DNA of 64,000 nt. Origin: Streptomyces sp. YIM 121038. GTDB taxonomy: Bacteria; Actinomycetota; Actinomycetes; Streptomycetales; Streptomycetaceae. Shown in pieces: positions 3,001-40,158 of this stretch (positions are counted from its first letter, which is position 1; every line of letters starts with the position of its first letter). Both the position numbers and the translations under genes were made by a program. A model generated the notes under the pieces. That model was given only the letters and a program-made list of their open reading frames with translations. It was not told the DNA's origin and ran no database searches. The stretch spans positions 3,286,001-3,350,000 of the forward strand of contig NZ_CP030771.1 in assembly GCF_006088715.1 (NCBI RefSeq), written 5' to 3'.

Positions 3001-6000
3001 GGCCGGTCAGGAGCGCGGCGAGGTCGTCGGCGATCCGCTCCACGGGCGCCGAGTGCGAGGCGTAGTCCACCGGGAGCCGCTTGACGCGCACCCCGTCGGC
3101 CTCGCAGGAGGCGACGAGTTCGTCGAGGGCGTCCAGGGCTCCGGCGACGACGACCGCCCCCGGGCCGTTGACGACGGCCACGGAGATCCGGCCGTCCCAC
3201 GGGCGCAGGCGTTCGGCGGCCGCGTCCTCGGACAGGGCGACGGAGACCATGCCGCCGGTGCCGGACAGGGCCAGGATGGCCTTGCTGCGCAGGGCGACGA
3301 CCTTCGCCGCGTCCGCGAGGCCGAGGGCCCCGGCGACGCAGGCGGCGGCGATCTCGCCCTGGGAGTGGCCCACCACCGCGGCGGGCTCCACGCCGTAGGA
3401 GCGCCACAGCGCGGCGAGGGACACCATCACCGCGAACAGCGCGGGCTGGACGACGTCCACCCGCTCCAGGGCGGCGGCATCGCGCAGCACCTCGAACAGG
3501 TCCCAGTCGACGTGCGGGGCCAGGGCCTCGGCGCACGCCCGCATCGACGCGGCGAACACCGGGGCCGCGTCGAGGAGTTCCACCGCCATCCCGGCCCACT
3601 GCGAGCCCTGGCCGGGGAAGACGAACACGATGCCGCCCGGCTCGCGCGCGGTGCCGCGCACCACGCCGGGGGCGTCGCTGCCCTCGGCGAGCGCCGCGAG
3701 GCCCCGGCGCCGCGCGGGCAGGTCCGCCGCGACGACGGCGGCCCGGTGCGGCAGTCCGGAACGGGCGGCGGCCAGCGCGAACCCGGCGTCCACCGGGTCG
3801 AGGCCGGGGTGCGTGTCCAGGAAGGACAGCAGGGCCGCCGCCTGGTCCGCGAGGGCGTCCGGCGCGCTCGCGGAGAGCACCCAGGGCAGCGCGGGGCCGG
3901 GCTCCGGGCGCGCCGAGGGGGGCCGTGCCGCCTGCTCCTGCTCCTGCTCCTGCTCCTGCGGGGCCTGTTCGATGATGACGTGGGCGTTGGTGCCGCTGAT
4001 GCCGAACGAGGACACCCCGGCCCGGCGCGCCCGGCCCGTCTCCGGCCACCGGCGGGCCTCGGTCACCAGCTCCAGGCCGCCCGCGGCCCAGTCCACGTGC
4101 GGCGTCGGCTCGTCGACGTGGAGGGTCCGCGGGACCGTGCCGTGCCGCAGGGCCTGCACCATCTTGATCACCCCGGCCACGCCCGCGGCGGCCTGGGTGT
4201 GGCCGATGTTGGACTTCAAAGAGCCGAGCAGCAGCGGGCGTTCCGGTGCCCGGCCGCGGCCGTACGTGGCCGCGAGCGCGTCGGCCTCGATCGGGTCGCC
4301 GAGCGTCGTGCCGGTGCCGTGCGCCTCGATCACGTCGACGTCGGCGGGCGACATCCCGGCACCGGCGAGCGCCTGGCGGATGACGCGTTCCTGGGCGACG
4401 CCGTTGGGCGCGGTGAGGCCGTTCGACGCGCCGTCCTGGTTGACCGCGCTGCCGCGCACCACGGCGAGGACGCGGTGGCCGTTGCGCCGCGCGTCCGAGA
4501 GCCGTTCGAGCACCACGGTGCCCGCGCCCTCGGCCCAGCCGGTGCCGTCGGCCCCGGCGGCGAACGCCTTGCACCGGCCGTCCCCGGAGAGGCCGCGCTG
4601 CCTGCTGAACTCCACGAACATGCCGGGCGTGGACATCACCGCGACGCCTCCGGCGAGGGCCAGCGAGCACTCCCCCGCCCGCAGGGCCTGCGCCGCCAGG
4701 TGCAGCGCCACCAGCGACGAGGAGCACGCGGTGTCCACGGTGACGGCGGGGCCCTGGAGGCCGAGCGTGTAGGCGATGCGGCCGGAGGCCACGCTGATGG
4801 TGCTGCCGGTGAGGCGGTAGCCGTCGGACTCGGCGTGGGCGGCGTGCAGCCGGGGCCCGTAGTCCTGCGCCATCGCCCCGACGAACACGCCCACGGACGC
4901 GCCGCGCTGCCCGGCGGGGTCGAGCCCGGCCCGCTCCAGGGCCTCCCAGGACGTCTCCAGGAGGAGGCGCTGCTGCGGGTCCATCGCGAGGGCCTCGCGG
5001 GGCGAGATGCCGAAGAACTCGGGGTCGAACTGGTCGGCGTCGTGCAGGAATCCGCCGTGCCGGGCGTAGGACGTGCCCGCCCGGTCCGGGTCGGGGTCGT
5101 AGAGCCGTTCGGTGTCCCAGCCCCGGTTGGCGGGGAACTCCGAGATCGCGTCGGTCCCGTCCAGGACGAGGCGCCACAGGTCCTCCGGCGAGGCGACGCC
5201 GCCGGGGAGGCGGCAGGCCATCCCGACGATCGCGATCGGCTCGTCGGCCGCCGCGACGGCGGCGGGGGCGGAGGCCGCGGGGGGCCGCGCGTCCGTGGTC
5301 CGCTCTCCCGCGGGCGTCAGCGTACGCAGATGGTCGGCGAGCCGGGCCGGCGTCGGGTGGCCGAACAGCGTCCCGGCCGGGAGCGCGAGGCCGGTCGCCG
5401 CGGACAGCCGGTCCCGGAGCTCCACCAGGGACAGCGAGTCGAAGCCGAGCTCCTTGAAGGTCGTGCCGGGCTCCACCGCGTCGCCGTCCGCATGTCCGAG
5501 CACGACGGCGACCGTCGACCGTACGAGGGCCAGCAGACCGGGTCCGGCGGGGAGGGCGGGGGCCGCCACCGCGGCGGCCGTCGGGGGCTCGGCGCCCAGG
5601 GCCTCGGGGACGTCGGGGGCCGCGGGCCGGGCCGTGGCCTCGGCCAGCCAGTACCGCTCGCGCTGGAAGGCGTACGTGGGCAGGCGCAGCGTCCGGGCGC
5701 CGCGCAGGGCGAAGACGCGCGGCCAGTCCACCTCGGCGCCGCGCGCGTGGAGTTCGGCGAGCGAGGTGAGGAACCGCTCGGGGCCGCCCTCGCCCCGGCG
5801 CAGCGAGCCGGTGACGACGGCGGACGCGACGCCGGCCCGCTCCACCGTCTCCCGCAGCGGCGGCACGAGCACCGGGTGCGGGCTGCACTCGACGAACACG
5901 CCGTGCCCGTCGCGCACCAGCGCCTCGGTCGCCCGCTCCAGCTCCACGGTCCGGCGAAGATTGCGGTACCAGTACGCCGCGTCGAGCTCGGCGGTGTCCA

Positions 6001-8284
6001 GCAGGCCGCCGGTCACCGTGGAGTAGAACGGCACCGCCGACGTCCTCGGGCGGATCCCTTCGAGAACGGTGTGCAGGCGTTCCTCGATCTGTTCCACGTG
6101 GGCGGAGTGGGACGCGTAGTCGACGGCGATCCTGCGGGTCTCGACGCCTTCCGCGGTCCACCGCTCGACGAGCCGGTCCAGGGCGTCGGCGTCGCCCGAG
6201 AGCACCACCGACGACGGGCCGTTGGCCGCGGCGATCGACACCGCGCCGTCCCACGCGGCGATCCGGTCGCGCACCTCCGCGGCGGAGCGCAGGACCGACA
6301 CCATGCCGCCGCGCCCGGAGAGCGCGAGGACGGCCCGGCTGCGCAGCGTCACCACGCGCGCGGCGTCCTCCAGGGACAGGGCGCCCGCCACGCAGGCGGC
6401 GGCGATCTCGCCCTGGCTGTGCCCGACGACCGCCGCGGGCTCGACCCCGCAGGAACGCCACGCGGCGGCCAGGGACACCATCACGGCGAACAGCGCGGGC
6501 TGGACGACGTCGACCCGCTCCAGGGCCGCCGCGTCGCGCAGCACCTCGTCGAGGGACCAGTCGACGTAGGGCGCGAAGGCCTCCTCGCACGCGCGCATCG
6601 ACGCGGCGAACTCCGGTACGGACTCCAGGAGTCCGACGGCCATGCCCGCCCACTGCGAGCCCTGCCCGGGGAAGACGAACACCGTCTTGCCGGCCGCCGT
6701 GGCCTGCCCCTCGACCACTCCGGCGACGGCCGTGCCGGAGGCGAAGGCGGCCAGGCGGGCGCGGAGTTCGGCCCGGTCGCCGCCGGTCACGACGGCGCGG
6801 TGCCGGAAGGCGGTCCTGGTGGTCGCGAGGGACAGGCCGATGTCCGCGGCGGGCACCGCCGCCCGCGCGTCGGCGAAGGAGAGGAGCTGGGCGGCCTGGG
6901 CGCGCAGCGCCTCGGGGGTGCGGGCGGAGAGCGGCCAGGCCAGGGCTGCGGGGGCCGGGCGCTCCTCGGCGGCCGGGGCGGCGGTCGGGGCGGTCGCCGG
7001 GCCGGTCGCGGCGTCGGCGGTCGGGGGCTCGCTGACCACCAGGTGGCAGTTGGTGCCGCCCATGCCGAACGAGCTCACCCCGGCCACCAGCAGCTTGTCC
7101 GGCTCGGGCCACGGCGTCAGCTCGGTCTGCACCCGCAGGCGCAGCTCGTCGAGGGGGATGTCCGCGGGCGGCGCGGTGAAGTGCAGGCTCGGCGGCAGCT
7201 GCCGGTGGTGGATGCTGAGGACCACCTTGAGGAGCCCGGCGATGCCGCCCGCGCCCTCCAGGTGCCCGATGTTGGACTTGACCGAGCCCACCGCGAGCGG
7301 GGCGTCCGGCTGCCGGGCGTGCCCGAGGGCGGCGCCGAGCGCGGCGGCCTCGATGGGGTCGCCCACCCGGGTGCCGCTGCCGTGCAGCTCCACGTACTGC
7401 ACGCCGCGCAGGGCGACACCGGCGCGCCGGTACGCCTGCCGGACGACCTCCTCCTGCGCGGAAGCGCTGGGCACGGTCAGGCCCGCGTGGTCGCCCTCGC
7501 CCGCGCCGTCGTTGTTCATGGCACCGCCGTTGAGGACGCAGTAGACGTCGTCGCCGTCGGCGAGCGCGTCGGCCAGCGGCTTCAGCACCAGGACGCCGCC
7601 GCCCTCGCCGCGGACGAACCCGTTCGCCCGCTCGTCGAAGGTGAAGCAGCGGCCGTCCGGCGACAGGCCGCCGAACCGGGCGGCGCCGAGCGTCGTCTCG
7701 GCCAGGACGTTGAGGTTCACGCCGCCCGCGATGGCCACGCCGCACTCGCCGCGGCGCAGGCTCTCGCACGCCATGTGGACGGCCACGAGCGAGGAGGACT
7801 GCGCGGTGTCGACGGCGAGGCTCGGCCCGCGCAGGCCGAGGTGGTGCGAGACGCGGTTGGCGATGATGCCGCGGCGGGTGCCGGTCATCGTGTGGCGGCC
7901 GATCCCGGCCTCGCCCAGGCGGTCCTGGAGCGCCGCGTAGTCGTCGTACATGACGCCGACGAACACGCCGGTGTCGCCGCCGCCGAGCGTGGCGGGGACG
8001 ATCCCGGCGTCCTCCAGGGCCTCCCAGGACAGTTCGAGCATCAGGCGCTGCTGCGGGTCCATCGCGGCGGCCTCGCGCGGCGAGACGCCGAAGAAGGAGG
8101 CGTCGAACCGGTCGATGCCGTCGACGAACCCGCCGAGCCGGTGCGGCAGTCCGGCGCCGCGCCAGCGGTCGTCGGGGGCCTCGCGTATCGCGTCGGTCCC
8201 GGTCCGCAGCACCTGCCAGAACTCGTGGCCGTCGCTGGCCCCAGGGAACCGACAAGCCAATCCGACCACGGCGATCTGTCTCAT
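1..8284 (-). CDS. Modular type I polyketide synthase (PKS A): KSQ loading module, module 1, continues past left edge
   Basis: The frame is open from an ATG at 8284 to the left edge with no stop, so at least 2,761 residues are encoded and the gene is partial. Visible order: KS (about 1-430), AT (GHSQGE, Ser623; YASH), ACP (DSL, Ser950); then KS (TACSSS, Cys1187), AT (GHSQGE near 1641; YASH), DH ([10 protein letters not shown]), KR (TGATGTLGG; Tyr2529; LDD) and ACP (near 2695), followed by a Pro/Ala/Glu linker. The first KS reads TAQSSS, with Gln162 in place of the catalytic Cys, and there is no N-terminal docking helix, as in KSQ decarboxylating loading modules. By family rules both ATs look methylmalonyl-specific, the starter would be propionyl, and module 1 would give an alpha-methyl enoyl thioester through a B-type KR. 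No clear ribosome site precedes the ATG, but an in-frame TGA lies 12 nt upstream, so the start is nearly forced. The gene is separated from its upstream neighbour by a hairpin and probably has its own promoter. Confidence 0.93.
1385..1435. repeat. Copy of a dispersed intergenic-type repeat inside the PKS A KR linker
   Basis: The sequence shares TGCGGGT, CGTGGCT and GTCGCGC blocks and a GCGCCCC-TGC-GGGGCGC hairpin (1419-1435) with the intergenic copy at 9879-9954. From memory this resembles a repeat common between Streptomyces genes. Here it is translated in frame as part of PKS A, adding roughly 16 residues (including [13 protein letters not shown]) just before the conserved WGL segment of the KR domain. 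Confidence 0.6.
3932..3960. repeat. Hexanucleotide microsatellite in the KS-AT linker of PKS A
   Basis: Four perfect CTGCTC units plus a partial unit encode a Glu-Gln repeat on the minus strand. It lies in the linker after the KS of module 1, where length change would stay in frame. Confidence 0.85.
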
Positions 8285-8503: not shown

Positions 8504-9709
8504 TCAGTAGAGCAGGGTCACCGCCGGGTGCACATCGAGGACGGCACGGCTGTAGTCCTCCAGGATGAGCGGCGCGTTCAGCGCGTTGTGCCGGCTCATC
8601 ACCGCGATGTCACGCCACAGGCGCTGCAGCGGGTTCGAAAGGGCGAAGGCGCTGCCGCCGACCGCGTCGAGGAGCTTCTCCACGCCCGCCCGCGACTTCT
8701 CCTGGGCGGACTTCTCGTGCATGCGGATCCGCGCCCGGTCCGCCCACGGCATCTGCTGGGTCTCCGGAATGCCGTCGAGCGCCCTGCCGACCTCCGTCAA
8801 ATGCAGCTGGGCGGTCTCGATGAGGTGCGCGGCCTCGCCGAACCACATCTGCACCGAGGGCGCGTCCGCGGCCCGCTCGAAGTTGGCGTACGTGATCGGA
8901 CGGCCCTTGTCCAGGTGCGCCTTGGTGACCTCCAGGGCGCCGTGGGCCGCCCCGACGATCGCGGCGAGCGACTGCGCGCTGCCCTGGATGAGCATGCTGT
9001 CCCGGTGGTCCTCGCCCACGAGGTCCGTGAGGCTGAACGGGGTCGCCCGGCGCTCGGGGATGAACACGTCCTCGGCCACGACCGTGTGGGTGCCGGAGCC
9101 GGACAGACCCGCGGAGTGCCAGGTCCGCTCGATCCGCAGGTCGCTCATGGGCACCACGACGCCGACGAGGTCCGTGGTCTGCTCGTCGCCGTCGTAGACG
9201 TGCACGACCGGGATGTACGCCCAGTCCGCGATCTCACAGCCCGAGCTCCACGGGAAGGTGCCGGTCACCTTGAACCCGCCCTCGGCGCGCCACGCCTTGG
9301 TCGTGGACAGGTGCGCCGTGGAGATCACGTACGCGTCGGGGTTGCCCTCGAAGACGTCCTCCAGCGCGGTCTCCGGCAGCGCGTTCAGCGCGAACCGGGT
9401 CGACGCGGTGTCGATGGACAGGTTCCAGCCCGCGGAGCCGCAGGCCTTGCCGACCTCGACGATGATCGACAGGAGGTCGGGCATCGGCAGCTCGTAGCCG
9501 CCGAACCGGGTCGGCGTCGTGAGCCGGAAGAGACCGGCGTCCCGCAGCGCGACCACGACCTCCTCCGCGAGCCTGCGGTCCTGCTCGGTCTTCACCGCGT
9601 GCTCGCGGATCAGCGGAGCGAGCTCGCGGGCCCGGCGCAACAGCTCCGCCGCGTCCACCGCTGCCGCTCCGGTTGTGATGTCAGCCCGCTCACCGGCCAC
9701 TGCTGTCAC
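8504..9709 (-). CDS. Acyl-CoA-dehydrogenase-fold flavin monooxygenase (candidate amine N-hydroxylase)
   Basis: A 401-residue protein of the acyl-CoA dehydrogenase/HpaH-like superfamily, which includes two-component flavin monooxygenases such as isobutylamine N-hydroxylase, DszC and the amino-sugar nitrososynthases. Seen: an N-terminal helical segment (LLRRARELAPLIREHA), a TPTRFGGYELP segment, a central WSSG/DWAYIPV beta domain and a C-terminal helical domain ending near HPAVTLLY. It lacks the usual EGSNEI catalytic-Glu segment of true acyl-CoA dehydrogenases, so oxygenase chemistry is preferred. The start is a GTG at 9709 with AGGAGG 5 nt upstream; an ATG at 9733 has poorer spacing, and the frame further upstream runs through a terminator hairpin. 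The nearest possible partner is the flavin reductase at 39468-40082. The substrate is unknown; an amine made by the aminotransferase fusion is inferred, and a hydroxylase of the carbon chain is the alternative. Confidence 0.8.
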   Translation of the reverse strand: MTAVAGERADITTGAAAVDAAELLRRARELAPLIREHAVKTEQDRRLAEEVVVALRDAGLFRLTTPTRFGGYELPMPDLLSIIVEVGKACGSAGWNLSIDTASTRFALNALPETALEDVFEGNPDAYVISTAHLSTTKAWRAEGGFKVTGTFPWSSGCEIADWAYIPVVHVYDGDEQTTDLVGVVVPMSDLRIERTWHSAGLSGSGTHTVVAEDVFIPERRATPFSLTDLVGEDHRDSMLIQGSAQSLAAIVGAAHGALEVTKAHLDKGRPITYANFERAADAPSVQMWFGEAAHLIETAQLHLTEVGRALDGIPETQQMPWADRARIRMHEKSAQEKSRAGVEKLLDAVGGSAFALSNPLQRLWRDIAVMSRHNALNAPLILEDYSRAVLDVHPAVTLLY

Positions 9710-9796
9710 GAAGTCCTCCTCGGTAGGTCGCATCACTCCGTGCGGCCCAGTCAATCCAGTGGGGCCTTGCGGCCCCAGGGGCCCCGAACACCAAAA

Positions 9797-9844
9797 GCGG
9801 CCGCCCCGCTGGTACTTGGGACCAAGTACCAGCGGGGCGGCCGC
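9797..9844 (-). terminator. Intrinsic terminator downstream of the MFS gene
   Basis: Perfect 21-bp arms (9797-9817 and 9824-9844) flank a 6-nt loop. On the minus strand the hairpin is followed directly by TTTT (complement of 9793-9796), the classical intrinsic terminator layout. It should insulate the MFS gene from the monooxygenase gene. Confidence 0.85.
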
Positions 9845-9878
9845 ATCGCGTCTTGCCACGATGCGCCCGCCTTTCGCC

Positions 9879-9954
9879 TGCGGGTGCACCGTGGCTCGTC
9901 GCGCCCGCGCGGCGGAGCCGCATATCGACGCAGCCCCGCGCCCCTTTGGGGCGC
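9879..9954. repeat. Dispersed Streptomyces-type intergenic repeat ending in a hairpin
   Basis: It contains CGTGGCTCGTCGCGC, a GCGGCGGAGCCGC block and a 7-bp hairpin GCGCCCC-TTT-GGGGCGC (9938-9954) immediately after the MFS stop. From memory this matches a repeat found downstream of many Streptomyces genes. A related copy lies inside PKS A at 1385-1435. Confidence 0.6.
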
Positions 9955-9959
9955 TGTCC

Positions 9960-11471
9960 TCACACCCCGGGTACGGGGGCTGCCCCTCCCACCTCCGCGT
10001 CGGCCTGGGCCGTCACATGGCGGTCGAAGAGGAGGCCGCAGATGACCGCCCCCGCGAGGAAGACCACCGCGCCCCAGAAGAAGGCCGTGGTGTAGCTCTC
10101 CACGGATGCCTCCGCGGCGAGCTGCGGCGTGGGCTGCTTGCCCTCGACGAAGTTGTCCGCCGCGGTGATCGCCAGGGTGCTGAGCAGCGCGGTGCCGATC
10201 GAACCGCCGACCTGCTGCACGGTGTTGACCAGGGCCGACGCGGCTCCGGCGTCCTGCGGTTCGACCCCGACCGTGGCGACCGCCGCGCCCAGGGAGACCA
10301 CCAGGCCGAAGCCGACGCCCGCGATGAAGATGGGCGCGAGGATGCCGGCGGCGTACGAGCTGTCGACGCTGAGCTGGCCGAGCCAGAACGAGCCCACGGC
10401 GGCGAGGACGAGACCGCCGGGGATCAGCACGCGCGAGCCGAGCTTCGGTTCGAGGACCGGCGGGATGGTGGTGGCGCCGATCGCGATGCCGACGATCATC
10501 GGCAGGAAGGCGAGACCGCTCTCGATCGCCGAGAAGTCCAGGACCAACTGGAGGTAGTAGGTCAGGAAGAGGAACTGGACGAACAGGCCGATGCCCAGCA
10601 GGAACATGCCCAGATACGCGCTGCCGCGGTTGCGGTGCAGCACGATCCGCATGGGCAGGAGCGGGGTGCGCGTACGGAGTTCGAACAGGACGAACGCGAT
10701 CAGCAGGACGCCGCCCGCGAGGAGCAGGCCCCATACGTCGGTGCCGCCCCACTCGCCGTCGTCGGCGTTGGACAGGCCGTAGGCCAGGCAGAACAGGCCG
10801 AGGGACGCCGTCACCGTGCCGGGCAGGTCGAGCTTGTCCGGGCGGTGCTCCGCCTGCCGGTTGTGCATGGTCAGCATCGCGCCGACGAACACCGCCGCCG
10901 TGAAGACGACGTTGACGTAGAGGCACCAGCGCCAGTCGAGCCAGTCGGTGAGGGCACCGCCGAGCAGCAGGCCGAGCGCGAGCCCGCCGCTGCCGAGCGC
11001 GCCGTAGACGCCGAAGGCCTTGACCCGTTCCTTCGGATCCTTGAACACGGTCAGCAGGAACGACAGCGCGGCCGGTGCGACCAGGGCGGCGAAGGCGCCC
11101 TGCAACGCGCGCGCCGTGACCAGCATGGAGAAGCCGTTGGCCGCGCCGCCGAGCACCGACATGATGCCGAAGCCGACGATGGAGATCATCAGCGACCGCT
11201 TGGCGCCGATCAGGTCGACGACCCGGCCGCCGAGCAGCAGGAGGCTGCCGAAGGCGAGGGCGTAGGCCGTGACCACCCACTGCCGGTCGCCGTCGCCGAA
11301 CCCGAGGTCGGCCTGGGCCGACGGCAGCGCGATGTTGACGACCGTGGTGTCCAGGAAGATCGTGAACTGGGCGACACCGATGACGGCGAGGATTAACCAG
11401 CGCTTGGCGTAGTGCGGATCGGACGAGAGTTCCGCCGCCACCTTTGCTCCGGATTCTGCTGACTCTGACAT
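9960..11471 (-). CDS. MFS drug-efflux transporter (DHA2, 14-TMS type)
   Basis: A 503-residue integral membrane protein with the drug:H+ antiporter features FLDTTVVNIALP in the first helix, a VVTAYALAFGSLLLLGGRVVD motif-A-like loop and WRWCLYVNV near helix 6. Its length and about 14 hydrophobic segments fit the DHA2 family, which often exports polyketides. The ATG at 11471 is preceded by AAGGG at about 8-nt spacing; an upstream in-frame start would run into the palindrome at 11495-11520. Leu26 is encoded by TTA (11394-11396), so translation may depend on the bldA tRNA. The gene lies between the aminotransferase fusion and a strong terminator. Export or self-resistance for the cluster product is inferred from context. 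Confidence 0.9.
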   Translation of the reverse strand: MSESAESGAKVAAELSSDPHYAKRWLILAVIGVAQFTIFLDTTVVNIALPSAQADLGFGDGDRQWVVTAYALAFGSLLLLGGRVVDLIGAKRSLMISIVGFGIMSVLGGAANGFSMLVTARALQGAFAALVAPAALSFLLTVFKDPKERVKAFGVYGALGSGGLALGLLLGGALTDWLDWRWCLYVNVVFTAAVFVGAMLTMHNRQAEHRPDKLDLPGTVTASLGLFCLAYGLSNADDGEWGGTDVWGLLLAGGVLLIAFVLFELRTRTPLLPMRIVLHRNRGSAYLGMFLLGIGLFVQFLFLTYYLQLVLDFSAIESGLAFLPMIVGIAIGATTIPPVLEPKLGSRVLIPGGLVLAAVGSFWLGQLSVDSSYAAGILAPIFIAGVGFGLVVSLGAAVATVGVEPQDAGAASALVNTVQQVGGSIGTALLSTLAITAADNFVEGKQPTPQLAAEASVESYTTAFFWGAVVFLAGAVICGLLFDRHVTAQADAEVGGAAPVPGV

Positions 11472-11494
11472 TCCACTTACCCTTTGTCGATCAG

Positions 11495-11520
11495 GCCGGA
11501 CCATCGGCCGATGGTCCGGC
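11495..11520. promoter_or_regulatory. Perfect 26-bp palindrome upstream of the MFS gene (candidate operator)
   Basis: Half-site GCCGGACCATCGG followed by its exact reverse complement CCGATGGTCCGGC, with no spacer. It lies in the 70-nt gap between the fusion gene stop and the MFS ATG. Such sites upstream of efflux genes are often bound by TetR-type repressors, and a TetR-like remnant lies at 40159-40344. As RNA it could also act as a terminator hairpin for the upstream operon. Confidence 0.6.
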
Positions 11521-11541: not shown

Positions 11542-14406
11542 TCAGGTGGAAATCGCCTCGAACCCGTGCTGCTGGGCGAGGTCGATGATTGCGTGCACCC
11601 GTTCCTGGGTAATGGCGCCTTCGCTCAACGTTCCGCCAGCGCCGGACAGGGCGAGGACGATTGCTTCCGCAGTCCCCGCCAGCAATTCACCCGTGTTCAA
11701 TGGACCATTGAAACCACGCGGCAGAATAGTATCCTCCGCTACCGAAAGAACACCACCCCGGATGTAAAGCAAATCGTCCCGCCCGGTGACAATGGCTGAT
11801 TCCGCACCCGTGCCGAAGAAGGAGAGATCGGCGACGATCGCGCCCTGGGCGAGATGCTTCTCCGCGAGAACCGGAACCGGACTCGAATGCGCCGCAAGGA
11901 CCGCGTGCGCATTCCGCACCTCGGCCAGGTCGTCGGTCGCGACGACGAACGGGTTGACGTCATAGGAATCAGCGAGATGCGCGGCGATGGCCGCGGCGCT
12001 CGGCTCGTCACCGGAGCGCCCGTCGGCGAGCCACTTGGTGACGAGCGGCTCGGCGGACAGCGCCGCCGCGATGCCGCTCAGCTCGCCCCCGGCCGCGATC
12101 CGCGTCCACGCGTCCTGGTAGATCCGGTGCTCGGTGGCGCGCAGCCGCTCGGCCGAGCCCTCCCGGCCGCTGCCCACCAGGACGATCCTCGCGACGTACT
12201 CGGCGCTGAGCGCGGCGAGCGCGGAGCCCACGCGGCCACCGCCGCCGACGACCGCGACGGTCAGCCCGGCCAGGTCGCCGAAGCGGGCCAGCGCGGGCTG
12301 TTCGAGCGCGGCCAGGGTGGCGCCGACCGCGAGGGTGCTGCCCGCGGTGACCGTGACGCCGGGCACCCGCAGCGCGCCGCCGTGCCCGCTCACCGTGCCG
12401 AGGCCGAAGCCGATGCCGACGGTCTCGTGGCCGTCCGCCTTGGCCGCGCGCACCCGGCGGTCGAGGTCGAGGCCGATCAGGAAGGTCTGCCCGGTGGTCC
12501 GGTAGGCGCGCAGCTGGTGCTGCGACACCAGGAGCGGGTAGACGGTGAGGTCGACGGAGGCGCCCTGCGGGGACGTGTAGCGGACCGGGGGCGTCGCGGG
12601 CAGGTCCTTGAGCAGCTCGGAGCGCTGGACGTAGGCGAGCAGCGCCGCGTCGTCCAGGTCGGCGAGCGAGGGGTCGAGCTCGCGCAGCGTGTCCGGGGTC
12701 AGCGGGTAGCTGACGAGCGCGACCTTGTGGGCGGCCGGCTCGGCGGGCGCGGCCGGCTCCGGTGCGGCGGCCTCCGCCTGGGGCGTCCGGAAGTCCTGGA
12801 TCTCGCGCGGCTGCCCCGCGGCGCCGGTCAGCGGGTGGATCAGCGGCAGCGCGTCCTGGTGGCGCAGGATCTCGCAGACCGCGGTGAGACCGGTGCGCAG
12901 CTGCTCGATCTCCGCGTCGGTGAGGTGGATCGAGGGCTCGATCCGCAGCATGTTGGGCACGCTGGCCGTCGGCCCGGTGCGGATGCGGTGGACCAGCTGG
13001 AGGTAGCTGCCGATCAGGAAGACCAGCAGGCCCGCGGCCGCCTTCTCGCGGATGACCGGGGAGGCGGCCTGGCTCTGGTCGGCGAACTCCAGGCCGATGA
13101 GCAGGCCCTTGCCGCGGACGTCGAGCACCACGTCGGGGTACTCCTCGGCCAGCTCGCGCAGCACGCCGAGGACGCGTTCGCCGCGCTCGGCGGCCAGGTC
13201 GTAGGCGGCGCCGCCGTCGGCTTCGAGGAGTTCGAGGGTGCGCAGGGCGATGGCCGTGGTGAAGCCGTCCTTGGCGAAGGTCGAGCTGTGCACCAGCTCG
13301 AACTCGGGGCGGTAGCGCGACTGCCGGACCAGCATGGCGGAGGTCTTGCCGATGCCGCCGCCGAGGGACTTGCCGAGGAGGTAGTAGTCGCCGAGCAGCC
13401 CGATGTGGGAGCTCGCGAAGAACTTCCCGGTGCGGCCCATGCCGGTCTGGATCTCGTCGATGACGACCGGGCACCCGGCCGCGTCGCAGATCTCCCGGAC
13501 GCGGGCGGCGTACTCGGGCGTCAGCGCGTGGATCCCGCCCTCGCCCTGGATCGGCTCCACGATCAGCCCGCCGACGACGGGGAAGGGCCGCTCGACGAGG
13601 GTGACCCTGCCGTCCACGACCTCGACGTCGAGCGCGGCGAGCCGGTGCTCGGCGAGGGCGCTCTCCAGCGCCGCCGCGTCGTTCGGCGGTACGAACGTCA
13701 CGGGCAGGCCGAGCGAGGCGAACGCCGCGCGGAACGTCGGGTTGAAGGTGAACTGGGTGCTGCCGAGGAGCTTTCCGTGGAAGGCGCGCTCCAGGGCGAA
13801 GAACACCGGGCTCGTGCCCGCGAGGCCGATGTTGTGCGCGGCCACCGCGCCGAGCAGCGCGCCGAACTCCTCGGCGGTGGTCGGCACCGGCACGTCGCCG
13901 GGCAGCAGGGACGTGTCGTCCGGCAGCCGCGCGGAGCCGTCGCCCACGGCCCGCACGGCCGCGTCGACGTTCCACTCGACCTGCTCGAACAGGCTCTTCA
14001 CCCGCAGCACGCGGTCGAACTCGCAGTGCTTGACGGCCGCTTCGACGGCCTCCGCGCCGCTGTTGGCGAAGATCACCGGGTAGGGCTCGGCGCCGGGGAA
14101 CTCCCGGCCGAGTATCCCGTTCAGGACCGCGCCGACCCGGTCGGCGGTCGGGTGCTCGGAGAACTGCGAGTGCACGGGTACGCCGGTGTCGAGGAGCTCC
14201 TTGGCGTGCGCCACGATCTCCGGGTGGTTGTGGCCGAGCATGAGCGAGCCCCAGCCGCCGACCAGGTCGAGCACCGGCACCTCGGTGCCGCTCTCGTCCA
14301 GGTAGTACAGGGAGTTCCGCTCCGCCCGGACGTACTTGAGGTTCAGGCCGAAGGTGCCGAGCATGCCGGTCAGTAGGGCTTCGGCGTATCGGGTGGGTGA
14401 GTTCAC
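11542..14406 (-). CDS. Class III aminotransferase fused to an acyl-ACP-reductase-like domain
   Basis: 954 residues. Residues 1 to about 515 are a PLP class III aminotransferase: ANSGAEA phosphate-binding loop, VIDEIQTGMGRTG, and LLGKSLGGG with the expected Schiff-base Lys346. About 85 residues are inserted between VKHCEFDR and RAFHGKLLG compared with ordinary members. After an Ala/Pro/Glu linker (about 530-550), residues 550-954 resemble cyanobacterial long-chain acyl-ACP reductase (AAR): TVGIGFGLGTV, a Rossmann VAVVGGGGRVGSAL (about 710-725), IRGGVLS and QQHGFEAI near the end. That half contains no cysteine at all, and alignment from memory puts Ala where AAR has its catalytic Cys. The GTG start at 14406 has AGGAGA at proper spacing and lies 15 nt after the PKS B stop, so the genes are coupled. 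Inferred role: reductive release to an aldehyde and transamination to an amine. The last ~150 codons (11542-11990) use far more A/T-ending codons than the rest. Confidence 0.8.
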   Translation of the reverse strand: MNSPTRYAEALLTGMLGTFGLNLKYVRAERNSLYYLDESGTEVPVLDLVGGWGSLMLGHNHPEIVAHAKELLDTGVPVHSQFSEHPTADRVGAVLNGILGREFPGAEPYPVIFANSGAEAVEAAVKHCEFDRVLRVKSLFEQVEWNVDAAVRAVGDGSARLPDDTSLLPGDVPVPTTAEEFGALLGAVAAHNIGLAGTSPVFFALERAFHGKLLGSTQFTFNPTFRAAFASLGLPVTFVPPNDAAALESALAEHRLAALDVEVVDGRVTLVERPFPVVGGLIVEPIQGEGGIHALTPEYAARVREICDAAGCPVVIDEIQTGMGRTGKFFASSHIGLLGDYYLLGKSLGGGIGKTSAMLVRQSRYRPEFELVHSSTFAKDGFTTAIALRTLELLEADGGAAYDLAAERGERVLGVLRELAEEYPDVVLDVRGKGLLIGLEFADQSQAASPVIREKAAAGLLVFLIGSYLQLVHRIRTGPTASVPNMLRIEPSIHLTDAEIEQLRTGLTAVCEILRHQDALPLIHPLTGAAGQPREIQDFRTPQAEAAAPEPAAPAEPAAHKVALVSYPLTPDTLRELDPSLADLDDAALLAYVQRSELLKDLPATPPVRYTSPQGASVDLTVYPLLVSQHQLRAYRTTGQTFLIGLDLDRRVRAAKADGHETVGIGFGLGTVSGHGGALRVPGVTVTAGSTLAVGATLAALEQPALARFGDLAGLTVAVVGGGGRVGSALAALSAEYVARIVLVGSGREGSAERLRATEHRIYQDAWTRIAAGGELSGIAAALSAEPLVTKWLADGRSGDEPSAAAIAAHLADSYDVNPFVVATDDLAEVRNAHAVLAAHSSPVPVLAEKHLAQGAIVADLSFFGTGAESAIVTGRDDLLYIRGGVLSVAEDTILPRGFNGPLNTGELLAGTAEAIVLALSGAGGTLSEGAITQERVHAIIDLAQQHGFEAIST

Positions 14407-14421: not shown

Positions 14422-17400
14422 TCAGCGGTTCGGTTGGGCGGAAGCGCGGCCGAGTTCCCGGTCGATGAAGTCGAAGACCTCGTTCTCCGTCGCGGTCTCG
14501 ATCGCGGCGGCCAGGTCCGTGTCGCCGGTGCCGGGGACCGCGTCGGGCCGCGCGTCGGTCCAGGCCTTGTTCCAGCGGGTGAGGATGGCGTTGAGCCGGG
14601 CGGCGATCTCGGTGCGGCCGGACTCCTCATCGGCCTCCGCGTCGACCGGGACGGCCATCAGGACGGCCTCCAGCTTGTCCAGTTCGGCCAGGGCCGAGCG
14701 CCGGCTGACGCCGTCGGTGAGGGCGAGGCGTTCCAGCAGGTGGTCGACGAGGGCCCCGGGCGAGGCGTGGTCGAAGACCAGCGTCGTCGGCAGGGACAGA
14801 CCGGTCTGCTCGCCGAGCCGGTTGCGGAACTGCACGGCGGACAGCGAGTCGAAGCCGGAGTCCCGGAAGGACACCTCCCACTGGAGGTGGTCCGGTGCCG
14901 CGTGGCCGAGCACCGCGGCCGCCTCGGCCCGCACCAGGTCCCGCAGGTGCGCCTCGGCCTCGGCCCGGCCCATGCCCGCGAACCGGTCGCCCGGCTTGTC
15001 GGCACTGGCCCGGCGGCGCTCACCGCGCGGCACGAGTCCGCGCAGCACCACCGGGACCTGCGCCGGGTCGCGGCGCAGGGCGGCCAGGTCGAGCGGCGCG
15101 GGCGCGACCACGGCGAGCCCGGTGGCGAGGGCGGCGTCGAACAGCGCGCACGCCTCGTCCCCGGCGATCACCCGCAGGCCCGGCTGCCCGCCCTCGACCA
15201 TCCGGCCCCAGGCGAGCGACACCGCGGGCAGCCCGCGGGAGCGGCGGTGCGCGGCGAGGGCGTCCAGGTAGGCGTTCGCCGCGGCGAAGTTGGCCTGCCC
15301 GGGGCTGCCGAGCAGGCCGACCACGGAGGAGAACAGGGCGAACAGCGCGGGCGGGGCGTCGGCCGTCAGCTCGTGCAGATGCCGGGCCCCGTCCACCTTG
15401 GGCCGCAGCACGGCGGCGACGCGCTCCGGGGTGAGCGCGGTGAACACCCCGTCGTCCAGGACGTTCTCGGTGTGGACGACCCCGGTGAGCGGGTGCTCGG
15501 CCGGGATGTCCGCGAGCAGCGCGCGCACGGCCTCGCGGTCGGCCAGGTCGCAGGCCACCACGGTGGCCCTCGCGCCCAGGGCGGTGAGTTCGTCGCGCAG
15601 CCCCTCGGCGGGCGAGCCGGGGCCGTGCGGGTCGGCGAGCACCAGGTGCCGCACTCCGTACGCGGTGACCAGGTGCCGGGCGAACAGGGCGCCCAGTTCC
15701 CCGTCGGCGCCGGTGACCAGCACGGTGCCGCCGTCCACGAGGGCGGGCGGCGCCGCCTCGGACGCGGCCGTGGGCACGAGCCTCGGCGCGTACAACTTTC
15801 CTGCCCGGACGGCCAGTTGGGGCTCACCCGCCTGGGCCACCAGGGGCAGCTGGTCGACGGAGGCCGGGTCGTCGTCCAGGTCGACGAGCACGATCCGGTC
15901 GGGGTGCTCCGCCTGGGCGGAGCGCAGCAGGCCCCACACGGCGGCTCCGGCCGGGTCGCGCATCTCGTCCTCGGCGCCGCGGGACAGCGCGCCCCTGGTC
16001 ACCACGGCCAGGCGGTTGTCCGGCAGGTCCTCCTGGGCCAGCCAGCGCTGGGCCGCGTCCAGCGCCCGCGCCACGGCCCGGTGCGCGGCGGCCACCGGGT
16101 CGCCCGCCGGGTCCGGCTCCGACGGCTCGACGAGGAGGACGTCCCACGGGGTGAAGGACGCGGCCGCCTCGTCGACGCCGTCGAAGCGCAGCGACGCGAT
16201 CTGGGCGAGGTCGCCGGTGGCGTCGCCGAGCAGGGCGAGCAGGCTCTCCGGCTCGTCGTCGGACACCGGTGCGACCGGTGTCCACTCGGGCGCGAACAGC
16301 GGGGCCGTACCGGCGGACACCGGAGCCGCACCGCCGTCCCTGGGGGTCAGGACCGCCGGGGCGAGCCGCACGGATTCGGCCACGAGGACGGGGAGCCCGG
16401 CCTCGTCGACGGCCTCCAGACGGAACGCGTCCGCACCGGCGGGGGCCAGGCGCACGCGCACGGCCGTCGCCTCACCGGCGTGCAGGGCGACGCCCTCCCA
16501 GGCGAGCGGGAGCAGCGCGGAGCCGTCCGGGCCCGCCCCGGGCCCGCCGAGCAGGAGGGGCTGCACGGCGGCCTCCAGGAGGGCCGGGTGGATCCCGTAG
16601 CCTCCGGCGTCCGCGGCGGCGCCTTCGGGCAGCCGGACCTCGGCGAACAGTTCGTCGCCCCGGCGCAGGACCGACGCGAGGCCCTGGAACGCCTCGCCGT
16701 AGCGGTACCCGGCGTCGGCGAGGTCCTCGTACGCCCAGTCCACGGCCTTGGCCTTGGCCGGCGGCCAGACGGCCGGTTCGGTGTCGGCCCGGTCGGCGGC
16801 GGGGGCGAGCACGCCGGTGGCGTGGCGGGTCCACTCCGGGGCGGTGCCGTCGCCGTCCCGTGCGGGGTCTTCGGCGGGCCGGGAGTAGATCCCCACGGTC
16901 CGCCGCCCGGCCGCGTCGGGCTCCCCGGTCACCACCTGTACGCGTACGGCGCCCTGGTCGGGCAGGACGAGGGGCTCGGTGACGGTGAGTTCGGCGAGGT
17001 CGGGGCAGCCGGTGGCGTCCCCGGCGCCGATCGCCAGGTCCACCAGGGCGGCCCCGGGCAGCACCGGCACCCCGGCGACGACGTGGTCGGCGAGCCACGG
17101 GTGGGTGGTCAGGGACAGCCGGCTCGTGAACACCGTCTCGTCCCGGCCCGCCACGGCGACGGCCGCGCCGAGGAGGGCGTGCTGCCCGGCCCCGGCGCTC
17201 TCGCCGCCGGCGGGGGCAGACTCGGCGGCCCAGTACCTGCGGCGCTCGAACGGATAGGTGGGCAGGGCCGTCCGGCCCGCTCCGGTGCCCGCGAACACGG
17301 CCGCCCAGTCGACGGCCGCACCGGCGACGAACAGCTCCCCCACCCCGTCGAGGACGGCGTGCACGGAGGGACGCCCCTCGGCGAGCAGGAGCACCGAGCC

Positions 17401-20400
17401 CGCGAGCACCCGCCGGGGGCCGGACTCGACGCACCGGGTCACGCCGTGCTCGGTGAGCCACCGCTCGGCGGCGGCGCTGCCCTCGGTCCCGCCGTCGCGG
17501 CCGGGCCGGTCGTCGGCGGTGAGCGGCGTGCCGGTGCGCAGCGACACCACGGGGATCCGCGGCGCGTCGTACGTCACGTCGGCCGCGCCCCGCGCCGTCA
17601 GGAGGCGGCCCGCGTCGGCCAGGGAGAGGGCCCCGGCGACGTGCGCGGCGGCGAGCTCGCCGACACCGGTGCCCGCGACACAGCCGACGGTGACGCCCCA
17701 GGCCCTGACCAGGCGGTACAGCGCCACCTCGGCGGCGAACCCGGCCGCGTCCCGGCCCTGTTCGCCGAGCCCGGCCAGCGTCTCGTCGTACGCCTTCGCG
17801 TACGCGGGCAGCGTCTCGTACAGCACCTGGTCGGGGCCGTCGGCGGACCCGGTGAACAGGAACGCGGTCCGGCCGTCACCCGCGGCGGGCGCGTCGGCCC
17901 CGGCGATCGCCCGCAGCCCGGTCAGGGCCGCGGCGCCGCCGCCGGTGACGAGCACCGCGCGGTGGTCGAACGCGGAGCGCTGCGCCAGCGAGAACCCGAC
18001 GTCGAGCGGGTCCGGCTCGGTGTCGGCCTCCAGGAGGGCGAGCAGCCGCTCGGCCTGGACGCGCAGGGCCTGCGGCGACTTGGCGGAAAGGACCCACGGC
18101 ACCACCGGCAGGGCCACCTCGGCCCGGGGTCCGGCCGGGGCGTCGGGGGCCTGCTCCAGGATGACGTGCGCGTTGGTGCCGCTGAGCGCGAACGCGGAGA
18201 CCGCGGCCCGGCGCGGCCGGTCGAGCTCCGGCCACGGGCGCGCCTCGGTGAGCAGCTCGACCGCGCCGGACTCCCAGTCCACGGCGGAGGTCGGCTTGTC
18301 GATGTGCAGGGTCTTCGGCAGGACGCCGTGGCGCATGGCCATGATCGCCTTGACCAGGCCGCCGGCGCCCGCGGCGTGCTGGGCGTGCCCGATGTTGGAC
18401 TTCACCGAGCCGAGCCAGGCCGGGCGGTCGGCGGGCCGCTCCCTGCCGTACGTCGCCATCAGGGCCTCGGCCTCGATGGGGTCGCCGAGCTGGGTGCCGG
18501 TGCCGTGCGCCTCGATGAGGTCCACCTCGGCCGGTGCGACACCGGCGTTGGCGAGGGCCTGGCGGATGACGCGCTGCTGGGAGGGGCCGTTGGGCGCGGT
18601 CATGCCGTTGGAGGCGCCGTCGGAGTTGACCGCGCTGCCCCGGACCACGGCGAACACCGTGTGCCCGTTGCGCCGGGCGTCGGAGAGCCGCTCCAGGACG
18701 AACAGGCCCACGCCCTCGGACCAGCCGGTGCCGTCGGCGGACTCGTCGAACGCCTTGGACCTGCCGTCGGGCGCGAGGGTGCGCTGCCGGGAGAACTCGA
18801 CGAACCCGATGGGCTGCGCCATCACGGTCGCGCCGCCCGCGAGCGCGAGGCCGCACTCGCCGCTGCGCAGCGCGTTCGAGGCGAGGTGCAGGGACACGAG
18901 GACCGAGGAGCAGGCCGTGTCGATGGACATGGTCGGGCCTTCGAGGCCGAGGACGTAGGAGATCCGGCCGGAGCCGAAGGACGTCGTGGAACCCGTCAGG
19001 AGGTAGCCCTCGGCGCCCCCTTCGGCGGCGCCCGCGCCCGCGCCGTACTCCTGCGCGGTCAGACCGGTGTAGACGCCGGTGTCGCTGCCGCGCAGCGACT
19101 GCGGGTCGATGCCGCCGCTCTCCAGGGCCTCCCACGAGGTCTCCAGGAGCAGGCGCTGCTGCGGGTCCATCGCGAGGGCCTCGCGCGGCGAGATGCCGAA
19201 GAAGCCCGCGTCGAACTCGGCGGCGTCGTAGAGGAATCCGCCTTCCCGCGTGTAGAAGGTGCCCGGCTTGTCGGGGTCCGGGTCCCACAGCCGCTCGATG
19301 TCCCAGCCGCGGTCGTCCGGCATGTCGCCGATCGCGTCGACGCCGTCGGCGACGAGCCGCCACAGGCCCTCGGGCGTGCTGGCCCCGCCGGGGAAGCGGC
19401 AGGCCATGCCGACGATCGCGATGGGCTCGTTCGCGCCGCCGGGGCCCGGGACCGCCGCCGCGACGGCCGCGGCCGGAGCCGCGAGGTCGCCGCTCAGCTC
19501 GGCCAGGACGTACGCGGCGAGCGCCGAGGTCGTCGGGTAGTCGAAGACCACGCCGGGCGACAGGCGCAGGCCGGTGACCGCGGCGATCCTGTTGCGCAGC
19601 TCGACCGCCGTCAGGGAGTCGAAGCCGAGGTCCCGGAACGGCACGTTCTCGCTGATCCGCTCGCCCGCGCCGAACTGGAGCACGGCGGCCACCTCGGTCC
19701 GCACCAGCTCGGTGACGTGCTCGTGCCGGTCCTGCTCGGGCAGCGCGGCGAGCCGTCCGGCAAGCGCCCGCTGGTCGCCCGCGCCCTGGCGGACCACCCG
19801 GCGCGACGGGCGGCCGACGAGGCTCCGCAGCATCGCCGGGACCGGCACGGAGCCGGACCGCAGCGTCCGCAGGTCGAGCCGCGCGGGCAGGGTGACCGGG
19901 CTCGCCAGGGCGAGGGCCCGGTCGAACAGGGCCGCACCGGCCTGTGGCGTCAGGGGCCGCAGGCCCGTCCGGCTCAGCTGCTCCGCGGCCCCGGCCTGCA
20001 GCCCGCCCTCGGTGTCCCACAGGCCCCAGCCGAGGGAGATCGCCGGGAGGCCGTGGGCGCGGCGGTGCTGCGCGAGGGCGTCGAGGAACAGATTGGCCGC
20101 GGTGTATCCGGCCTGCCCCGCGTTGCCCAGCGTGCCCGCGAGGGACGAGAAGAGGGTGAAGAGGGCGAGGGGTTGGTGGCGGGTGAGTTCGTGCAGGTGC
20201 CAGGCGGCGTCGACCTTGGGCCGCAGGACGGTGGTGAGGCGTTCGGGGGTGAGGGCGGTGATGATGCCGTCGTCGATGACACCGGCGGTGTGCACGACAC
20301 CGGTCAGGGGGTGCTCGGCGGGGATGGCGTCCAGGACGGCCTTGAGCGCGTCGCGGTCGGCGGCGTCACACGCGGCGATCCGCACGGTGGCGCCCAGGCC

Positions 20401-23400: not shown

Positions 23401-24768
23401 CGTGCCGCTGATCCCGAAGGAGGAGACCGCCGCGCGGCGCGGCCGCCCCGTCTCCGGCCAGGGGCGTTCCTCGGTGACGAGTTCGACCGCACCGGCGGTC
23501 CAGTCGACGGCGGGCGTGGGCTCGTCGACGTGGAGGGTCTTCGGGACCACCCCGTGCCGCATCGCCATGACCATCTTGATCACGCCCGCGACCCCGGCGG
23601 CGGCCTGCGTGTGCCCGATGTTCGACTTCAACGACCCCAGCAGCAGCGGCTGGTCGTCCGAGCCGTCCGTACGCGCCTGCCCGTACGTGGCGAGCAGCGC
23701 CTGGGCCTCGATCGGGTCGCCCAGCTTCGTGCCGGTGCCGTGGGCCTCCACCACGTCGACCTCGGCGGGCGAGAGGTCGGCGTCGGCGAGGGCCTGGCGG
23801 ATGACGCGCTGCTGGGAGGGGCCGTTGGGCGCGGTGAGGCCGTTGGAGGCGCCGTCGGAGTTGACCGCGCTGCCCCGGACCAGGGCGAGTACGGGCAGGC
23901 CCCGCTCCCGCGCCACCGAGAGGCGGGCGAGGACGAGGACGCCGACGCCCTCGGAGAAGCCGGTGCCGTCCGCGGCGGCGGCGAAGGCCTTGCAGCGGCC
24001 GTCCGGCGCGAGGCCGCGCTGCCGCGAGAACTCCACGAACACGCTGGGGCCCGACATCACGGTGGCGCCGCCCGCGAGGGCGATGTCGCACTCCCCGTTG
24101 CGCAGCGCCTGCTCCGCGAGGTGCATCGACACCAGCGACGACGAGCAGGCCGTGTCGAGGGTCACCGTCGGGCCCAGCAGGCCGAGCACGTAGGAGATGC
24201 GGCCCGAGGCGACGCTCGTGGTGCCGCCGGTGAGCACGAAGCCCTCCAGCTCCTCGGGCGTCTCCCCCGCGCGCGGCATGTACTCCTGCGGGATCACGCC
24301 GACGAACACGCCGCCCGAACTGCCGCGCAGCGACGCCGGGTCGATGCGGGCGTTCTCCAGGGCCTCCCAGGACGCTTCGAGCAGGACGCGCTGCTGCGGG
24401 TCCATCGCCTGCGCCTCGCGCGGCGAGATCCCGAAGAACTCGGCGTCGAACCCGGCCGCGTCGGCCAGGAACCCGCCCTTGGTGAGGTACGTGGTGCCCG
24501 GCGTCCCCGGGTCGGGGTCGGAGAGTCGGTCGAGGTCCCAGCCCCGGTCGTCGGGGAACTCCGTGAGGGCGTCGCCGCCGTCGCGGAGCAGCTCCCACAG
24601 CTCCTCGGGGGTGCGGGCGCCGCCCGGGAAGCGGCTGGCCATGCCGACGATCGCGATCGGCTCGCGGGCGGCGGTCCGTACGTCGTGCAGCTCCCGCCGC
24701 GCCCGCTGCAGGTCGGTCGTGACCCGCCGCAGATACTCTCGAAGCTTCTGCTCGTTGGAGTTGGACAT
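14422..24768 (-). CDS. Modular type I polyketide synthase (PKS B), two modules, second module degenerate
   Basis: 3,448 residues. The ATG at 24768 (MSNSNEQ) starts a coiled-coil docking helix, with AAAGGGGG upstream. First module: KS (Cys208), malonyl-type AT (GHSVGE, Ser665; HAFH about 765), DH ([10 protein letters not shown]), KR (Tyr1555, IDD) and ACP (near 1717). Second module: KS with Cys1953 and intact EAHGTGT and NIGH motifs; an AT of only about 170 residues in which GHSxGE reads GTGVGE (Thr2367, Gly2368) and the whole HAFH region is missing; a DH with [10 protein letters not shown] but Glu2732 for the usual Asp; a KR with Phe3161 for the catalytic Tyr (NFAAAN); and an ACP (near 3308). 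The C-terminus ([12 protein letters not shown]) is a docking segment, so there is no thioesterase. It lies 35 nt after PKS C and 15 nt before the fusion gene, all on the same strand. Module 2 probably cannot load or reduce by itself. Confidence 0.95.
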
Positions 24769-24803
24769 CCCGGGCAGCCCCCTTTCGTTCGGCACAGGCG
24801 AGA

Positions 24804-31124: not shown

Positions 31125-31255
31125 CGTCTCGTCACTCCTCCGGCCGGGGTACTCAGCTCGGCCAGTCAACATTGCGGGGGTGGTGGGCAGCCGGGTTCGA
31201 GAACACCGGACCGGGCGGCGAATTTGGCCCCCGGAACCAACCGGCGGGCGCGTTC

Positions 31256-40082: not shown

Positions 40083-40108
40083 AATCGACTCCTCGACTAG
40101 CCAACTCC

Positions 40109-40120
40109 TCGATATATCGA
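40109..40120 (-). promoter_or_regulatory. Palindrome TCGATATATCGA with adjacent -10-like TATACT
   Basis: A perfect 12-bp palindrome 26 nt upstream of the flavin reductase ATG; the minus strand reads TATACT just before it. It is likely part of that gene's promoter or operator. Confidence 0.45.
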
Positions 40121-40158
40121 AAGTATATGGAGCCCGGAGATCCCCATGTTGGGACGAG

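What the first reader, a model, noticed from the sequence alone, without database searches (positions are those of the whole stretch)
11542..14406. Aminotransferase fused to an acyl-ACP-reductase-like domain that has no cysteine
The C-terminal half resembles cyanobacterial acyl-ACP reductase, which uses a catalytic Cys and forms an acyl-enzyme. This copy has no Cys anywhere in residues 550-954 and appears to carry Ala at the equivalent site. It either reduces thioesters without an acyl-enzyme or does different chemistry, such as acting on an aldehyde or imine beside the PLP domain.
Basis: partly seen in the sequence, partly recalled or inferred. Interest (0 to 1): 0.75.

Follow-up and report, generated by a model that had tools for sequence, protein, structure and literature searches.

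The report
Aminotransferase with a decayed reductase domain
An amine-making enzyme of a Streptomyces-type bacterium still carries a reductase half that has lost its active site, apparently because the neighbouring assembly line now makes the aldehyde itself, and relatives show that half being whittled away.

Summary
The 954-aa gene is on the MINUS strand. Residues 545-954 contain no Cys and fold like cyanobacterial acyl-ACP reductase (AAR). The residue at the AAR Cys294 position is Gly911, not Ala. The missing Cys is part of a wider loss: of 107 full-length fusions aligned, 74 keep a "[TS]S[IV]" motif and all 74 have the Cys; 33 lost that motif and a "GN" motif, and 30 of these also lack the Cys. 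The aldehyde probably comes from elsewhere: the PKS, about 19 kb away, ends in an SDR-type thioester reductase. One lies within 25 kb on the same contig in 15 of 16 Cys-less genomes and 0 of 20 intact-type genomes. The aminotransferase tree forms a ladder: intact fusion, degenerate fusion, fusion without a recognisable Rossmann core, aminotransferase alone. Best reading: the PKS reductase took over and the fused reductase is decaying beside a working aminotransferase. Against pure decay, cofactor loops stay unusually conserved in the window's clade, so a new NAD(P)H-dependent reaction is not excluded. Cys-free thioester reduction is unlikely. No chemistry was tested.

The parts
11542..14406 (-). 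Whole gene: class III aminotransferase fused to a degenerate AAR-like domain, 954 aa, GTG start
12847..14406 (-). Aminotransferase domain (residues 1-520), nearest solved structure CrmG; PLP lysine taken as K346 (13369-13371)
   Evidence: CrmG E 1e-136; K346 invariant in 35 of 35 rows. That this Lys binds PLP is recalled from the family
12733..12846 (-). Linker, residues 521-558, variable
   Evidence: linker 520-556 is the fastest-changing part in the window clade; low pLDDT at 543-553
12382..12732 (-). AAR-like N-terminal subdomain (residues 559-675), the most conserved AAR-like subdomain in the window clade and the part kept in Rossmann-less relatives
11812..12264 (-). Rossmann subdomain (residues 715-865) with Gly-rich loop VVGGGGRVGSA (about 12223-12246)
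11545..11811 (-). C-terminal subdomain (residues 866-954) that carries the catalytic Cys in AAR; Gly911 here (11674-11676)
9960..11504 (-). DHA2-type MFS exporter
8504..9889 (-). Acyl-CoA-dehydrogenase-fold flavin monooxygenase, possibly N-oxidising
   Evidence: HsaA-type hydroxylases, XiaF; N-oxidation is inferred
2..8284 (-). PKS: KSQ loading module plus KS-AT-DH-KR-ACP module, runs on below the window
14422..25575 (-). PKS ORF, two KS-AT-DH-KR-ACP modules; the true start is near the docking helix, about residue 270 of this ORF
24804..31850 (-). PKS ORF, KS-AT-DH-ER-KR-ACP module; the true start is near its docking helix
33209..37332 (-). Five genes: HAD, acyl-CoA dehydrogenase, ACP, O-methyltransferase, 3-hydroxyacyl-CoA dehydrogenase; read as a methoxymalonyl-ACP set from recall
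   Evidence: the ACP is just below its Pfam cut-off
39468..40292 (-). Flavin reductase, possible partner of the monooxygenase

Best explanation
The protein descends from a working aminotransferase-thioester reductase fusion of the PtTamH kind. In its lineage the aldehyde came to be made by the SDR-type thioester reductase at the end of a modular PKS, so the fused AAR-like half was no longer needed for thioester reduction. It lost its catalytic Cys and two neighbouring motifs and is decaying. The aminotransferase half still turns the PKS-released aldehyde into an amine, which the flavin monooxygenase next door may oxidise. The AAR-like half remains as a nucleotide-binding scaffold, possibly for aldehyde handover or dimer contacts, rather than as a thioester reductase. 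Shown by sequence: loss of the Cys and motifs, clade-level association with a thioester reductase gene, faster change of the Cys-bearing subdomain, and relatives lacking the Rossmann core. Inferred: direction of change, origin of the aldehyde, amination and scaffold role.
For: (1) PKS terminal reductase in the window's cluster: TIGR01746 317 bits against a cut-off of 213, with the YxxxK signature (motif recalled). (2) Neighbourhood: a thioester reductase lies within 25 kb on the same contig in 15 of 16 Cys-less genomes: G000-G013 and G396 by TIGR01746, G686 by tblastn with the window's reductase; gaps and residues. The miss, G001, has the fusion on a 28-kb contig that ends where the reductase would lie. 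In G010 it is in two frame-broken pieces below cut-off. In the intact-type set it is 0 of 20 (Cys read in 19, L039 not read; G019 has one about 70 kb away). (3) Motifs in 107 fusions: 74 have the TSI-type motif and all 74 have Cys; 30 lost TSI, GN and Cys; 3 lost TSI and GN but keep Cys. (4) The Cys-bearing subdomain goes from 0.56 (noursei group) and 0.69 (proteobacterial group) times the aminotransferase distance to 2.6 times in the window clade (ratios). (5) Nine relatives of 682-764 aa match the first part of the AAR profile but not its core; two also match its end clearly and one weakly. One genome with such a copy, G696, has a thioester reductase about 18 kb away. (6) On the aminotransferase tree intact, degenerate, Rossmann-less and standalone need 3 changes for 4 states.
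Against: In the window's clade the strand-end (cofactor) loops are far more conserved than the rest of the Rossmann core: 16 of 23 against 32 of 128 positions invariant, p 6e-5; 16 of 23 against 36 of 128 after thinning to 12 rows. Pure decay does not predict that. Relative to the aminotransferase and to the intact groups, the Rossmann core is not more relaxed than the N-terminal subdomain. Crude dN/dS of the AAR-like half is 0.37, against 0.32 for the aminotransferase half, so it is still selected. The Saccharothrix relative G439 has the PKS reductase nearby and keeps the Cys. The association is close to one evolutionary event, not 16 independent ones. Thioester reductases are common in these genomes: at least one over cut-off anywhere in 13 of 14 Cys-less, 8 of 20 intact-type and 13 of 14 standalone-type genomes. 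Trees are rooted by choice on intact relatives. Short contigs limit the 0 of 20. No chemistry was tested.
Confidence: 0.55

Rival explanations
1. Repurposed reductase: the AAR-like domain lost thioester chemistry but now uses NAD(P)H for a Cys-free hydride transfer on a post-release intermediate, for example a cyclic imine or a second carbonyl, next to the PLP site.
For: Gly-rich loop kept in 19 of 19 window-clade proteins; strand-end loops selectively conserved; residues newly invariant in the clade, H675, H840 and S841, the last two in a loop that I place near the nicotinamide by homology. In the argimycin pathway an imine is reduced after PKS release and transamination, by a separate enzyme, ArpDHII (PMC5820336, passages).
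Against: The Cys-bearing subdomain is the fastest-changing folded part of the window clade. Close relatives have a broken Gly-rich loop (P0083) or a deletion in the core (P0028, P0077), or no match to the core. No product is known.
Confidence: 0.32
2. Cys-free thioester reduction: hydride is delivered straight to the acyl-ACP thioester, as SDR-type reductases do, without an acyl-enzyme.
For: AAR fold and Gly-rich loop kept; SDR-type thioester reductases show that a Cys is not chemically required (recalled).
Against: All three motifs of the intact fusions are lost, and an SDR-type reductase already ends the PKS.
Confidence: 0.05
3. The domain still forms an acyl-enzyme through another residue or a Cys from another chain.
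For: The Saccharothrix type keeps Cys911, so the loss is not complete in the wider clade.
Against: No Cys in the window domain. No other nucleophile was tested; the change of the surrounding motifs argues against it.
Confidence: 0.03

Closest known systems
PtTamH, tambjamine aminotransferase-thioester reductase (PMC9594044)
   Same: Aminotransferase first, AAR-like domain second, similar length (941 and 954 aa)
   Different: PtTamH has a putative catalytic Cys887, gives aldehyde and amine from a C12 acyl-ACP and is NADH-specific; the window protein has Gly at that place and sits in a PKS cluster with its own thioester reductase. PtTamH's own sequence was not aligned here
PigE, prodigiosin pathway (PMC8341465)
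   Same: Same two domain kinds; the profile of this family finds PigE-like 4ppm
   Different: Reversed domain order; Cys296 conserved; evidence for thioester reduction given in the paper
Cyanobacterial acyl-ACP reductase (PMC7089970; 6jzy)
   Different: No Cys294; far below the TIGR04058 cut-off (15.7 against 449.7 bits)
Carmabin-pathway domain named TAD in PDB entries 9e4s to 9e56
   Different: One entry title gives a disulfide between its Cys2238 and dephospho-CoA; no such Cys here. A search for carmabin, thioester and aldehyde together listed 0 papers
CrmG, caerulomycin aminotransferase (5dds)
   Same: Nearest solved structure of the aminotransferase half (E 1e-136)
   Different: 523 residues, so no room for an AAR-like domain
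ArpPIII/ArpN of argimycins P (PMC5820336)
   Same: PKS thioester reductase proposed to release an aldehyde that an aminotransferase converts
   Different: No fused reductase is described in the passages read

Membership tests
Class III aminotransferase | Pfam Aminotran_3 above its curated cut-off | tested here: met
   203.3 bits against 30.5
Class III aminotransferase | Conserved PLP lysine | tested here: met
   K346 invariant in 35 of 35 rows; its identity as the PLP Lys is recalled
Acyl-ACP reductase (AAR) | AAR fold | tested here: met
Acyl-ACP reductase (AAR) | Catalytic Cys294 | tested here: not met
   Gly911
Acyl-ACP reductase (AAR) | NCBIfam TIGR04058 above cut-off | tested here: not met
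   15.7 against 449.7 bits
Acyl-ACP reductase (AAR) | Gly-rich NAD(P) loop | tested here: met
   VVGGGGRVGSA; kept in 19 of 19 window-clade proteins
Acyl-ACP reductase (AAR) | Thioester reduction through an acyl-enzyme | not testable with these tools
   needs an assay
PtTamH-type aminotransferase-thioester reductase | Aminotransferase then AAR-like domain | tested here: met
PtTamH-type aminotransferase-thioester reductase | Catalytic Cys and the TSI and GN motifs of the intact fusions | tested here: not met
PtTamH-type aminotransferase-thioester reductase | It is the reductase that releases the chain | tested here: inconclusive
   another release reductase is encoded; not shown biochemically

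The most novel reading that the evidence does not exclude
The window's clade carries a Cys-free AAR-derived dehydrogenase with a new job. Having lost thioester chemistry, it uses a preserved NAD(P) pocket and residues newly fixed in the clade (H675, H840, S841) to reduce an imine or carbonyl made by the fused aminotransferase, in a family where sister lineages lost the domain.
Probability: 0.3. Interest if true: 0.75.

Novelty: new variant of a known kind. Interest (0 to 1): 0.52.

Why it matters
If right, it catches stages of one story in living genomes: a fused catalytic domain becomes redundant when a neighbouring megasynthase acquires the same activity, loses its active site, loses its cofactor core, and disappears. 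It would suggest that standalone aminotransferases related to CrmG descend from reductase fusions. It also warns that reading these proteins as aminotransferase-thioester reductases is wrong for a whole Streptomyces and Embleya clade, and it offers a natural Cys-free AAR scaffold to test for new chemistry.

Tried and rejected
Rejected: total absence of Cys as the special feature (4 of 27 proteins in A1 have none). Rejected: Ala at the site (it is Gly). Set aside: the 840-aa plus-strand ORF over the gene, which I take for a shadow ORF. Not resolved: the product; paper searches listed nothing that matched this cluster by title and abstract. A search for a described inactive reductase half listed five papers: PtTamH, PigE and three others that I did not open; two searches listed PtTamH, PigE, TamA and one cyanobacterial paper. 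This is absence from the searched open-access library only. Plasmids: one distant match (29.8% identity). No independent-contrast test was run for the association with the PKS reductase, because it is close to one event; other roots were not tried. The loop classes were chosen by eye after I had seen conserved stretches, so repeats the test with loops read from DSSP. The groups were hand-picked from the families found; one search counts some proteins twice (a locus and its protein id). The check for the PKS reductase architecture looked at 8 regions: 6 show it by pattern, G012 did not match the pattern although its ORF resembles the terminal PKS, and the intact-type region G021 has none.

Full report
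WHAT IS THERE. The ORF 11542-14406 lies on the minus strand, 954 aa, GTG start. Residues 1-520 are a class III aminotransferase (Aminotran_3) whose nearest solved structure is CrmG (E 1e-136). Pfam gives nothing above cut-off for the rest; NCBIfam gives PigE and AcACP_reductase far below their cut-offs, and a single-sequence search of the PDB does not find AAR. A 28-row profile of the C-terminal half does find PigE and three AAR sequences in the PDB. The model of residues 545-954 (pLDDT 85.5, pTM 0.87; alignment A3 holds intact relatives too) matches AAR 6jzy best, then a carmabin-pathway domain. The residue against AAR Cys294 is Gly911, not Ala.

HOW THE CYS IS DISTRIBUTED. 107 full-length fusions (840-1020 aa) from two searches were aligned: 77 have Cys at 911, 27 Gly, 2 Ser, 1 Ala. 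One search lists the best 120 of 772, so this is a sample. Two further motifs, also seen in AAR and PigE in the alignments (TSI at 669-671 and GN at 689-690), go with it: TSI, GN and Cys 73; TSI, GS and Cys 1; none of the three 30; Cys without the other two 3. Those three are the Saccharothrix type (P0021-P0023). On the C-terminal tree the 18 rows that include the window and these three are held together (100/100) on a branch of 0.85 changes per column, and the Cys state needs two changes.

WHO MAKES THE ALDEHYDE. The cluster continues below the window. Its terminal PKS (genome C1 3272351-3278791, plus strand) is KS-AT-DH-KR-ACP followed by NAD_binding_4 / TIGR01746 with a YxxxK motif, 18.8 kb from the fusion gene. 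TIGR01746 was sought in the genomes of the fusion loci. Cys-less: 14 genomes plus G396; G686 was checked by tblastn with the window's reductase. 15 of 16 have one on the same contig, gaps 4.8 to 23.2 kb (about 17 kb in G686). In G001 the fusion contig is 28 kb and ends where the others have the reductase; matches lie on other contigs, one of them at a contig start. In G010 it is in two pieces below the cut-off. Intact type: 20 genomes, 0 within 25 kb; G019 has one about 70 kb away on the same contig. Some of these contigs are short (L025 7 kb, L022 18 kb), but G016, G021 and G033 are complete chromosomes. Background: a match over cut-off anywhere in the genome is found in 13 of 14 and 8 of 20, and in 13 of 14 genomes with a standalone aminotransferase, for which distances were not worked out. 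G439 (Saccharothrix) has both the PKS reductase 11.4 kb away and Cys911, so the PKS reductase may have come before the loss of the Cys.

CONSTRAINT. In the window clade the AAR-like half changes 1.77 times as fast as the aminotransferase half, against 0.78 in the noursei group and 1.13 in the proteobacterial group. By subdomain, mean distances in the window clade (19) are: aminotransferase 0.179, linker 0.570, N-terminal subdomain 0.214, hinge 0.380, Rossmann 0.316, C-terminal subdomain 0.469. In the noursei group (10): 0.185, 0.200, 0.099, 0.130, 0.153, 0.103. In the proteobacterial group (12): 0.442, 1.006, 0.344, 0.615, 0.630, 0.307. The Cys-bearing subdomain thus goes from among the most conserved to the least conserved of the folded parts. 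The Rossmann core is not more relaxed than the N-terminal subdomain by this measure. dN/dS of the AAR-like half stays below 1 (0.37, aminotransferase 0.32; crude count method). Against pure decay, the strand-end loops of the Rossmann core hold 16 of 23 invariant positions against 32 of 128 elsewhere.

THE LADDER. Nine relatives of 682-764 aa match only the first part of the AAR profile (ending at profile position 72 to 148 of about 390), two of them also its end clearly and one weakly (E 0.26), with no match across the nucleotide-binding core; 44 standalone loci and three standalone proteins scanned in the same call have no match at E 1. P0083 has a broken Gly-rich loop, and P0028 and P0077 have a deletion that begins after the second strand. 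One genome with a copy of this kind (G696, open frame 757 aa) has a thioester reductase about 18 kb away by tblastn. On a tree of 70 aminotransferase halves rooted on remote intact fusions, the degenerate full-length fusions are sister to Rossmann-less plus standalone; four states need three changes, the minimum. An earlier tree with other rows agrees on fusion against standalone (one change). Both are quick trees, and the direction rests on the root.

CLUSTER. In Embleya (G002) and Streptomyces (G396) the same order of genes is kept: methoxymalonyl-type genes (four of five called in G002, five in G396), SARP, PKS, fusion, MFS, flavin monooxygenase, PKS, and the reductase-ending PKS. In the Saccharothrix region no ORF matched the monooxygenase. 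In the S. noursei region (40 kb) the intact fusion follows two ORFs that match the window's PKS proteins at 30-34% over about 300 residues, as discrete ketosynthases would, and no modular PKS was called, consistent with release from a discrete ACP. The product is unknown.

LITERATURE SEEN. PMC9594044: first of five parts and passages. PMC8341465, PMC7089970 and PMC5820336: passages. Others: search listings only.

VERDICT. The finding is real, but the best account is a decayed reductase beside a presumably working aminotransferase, with a reused NAD(P) pocket as the live alternative. On rechecking, the N-terminal subdomain turned out not to be less relaxed than the Rossmann core, so I moved the odds slightly (0.58 to 0.55 for decay, 0.30 to 0.32 for reuse).

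Noticed in passing
8504-9889 (-) and 39468-40292 (-): Flavin monooxygenase of the acyl-CoA dehydrogenase fold (homologs in the G396, G002, G011 and G013 regions) and a flavin reductase (homologs in G396 and G439). With the CrmG-like half this suggests an N-oxidised product such as an oxime.
   Followed up: partly
genome C1 3269356-3270696 (-), below the window: A 446-aa ORF that reads like an acyltransferase and has no ketosynthase; homologs sit in the Embleya, Saccharothrix and S. caeruleatus regions. Possibly a trans-acting AT.
   Followed up: no
2-8284 (-): The first KS carries TAQSSS where the others have TACSSS, that is, a KSQ loading module (read; name recalled).
   Followed up: no
P0087, P0095, P0096, P0098, P0099, P0102, P0103, P0112, P0118: Aminotransferases, mostly named 'aspartate aminotransferase family protein', that carry an AAR remnant without a recognisable Rossmann core. 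In four of them the simple pattern K[AS][LIV]GGG for the PLP lysine is not found.
   Followed up: partly
L040 and L039: Fusion genes broken by frame changes; in the L040 genome the thioester reductase is also split in two pieces, so that cluster may be dead or badly sequenced.
   Followed up: no
L099 / G439: Saccharothrix relative with the PKS reductase nearby, Cys911 kept, but the TSI and GN motifs lost: a possible intermediate or a reversion.
   Followed up: partly
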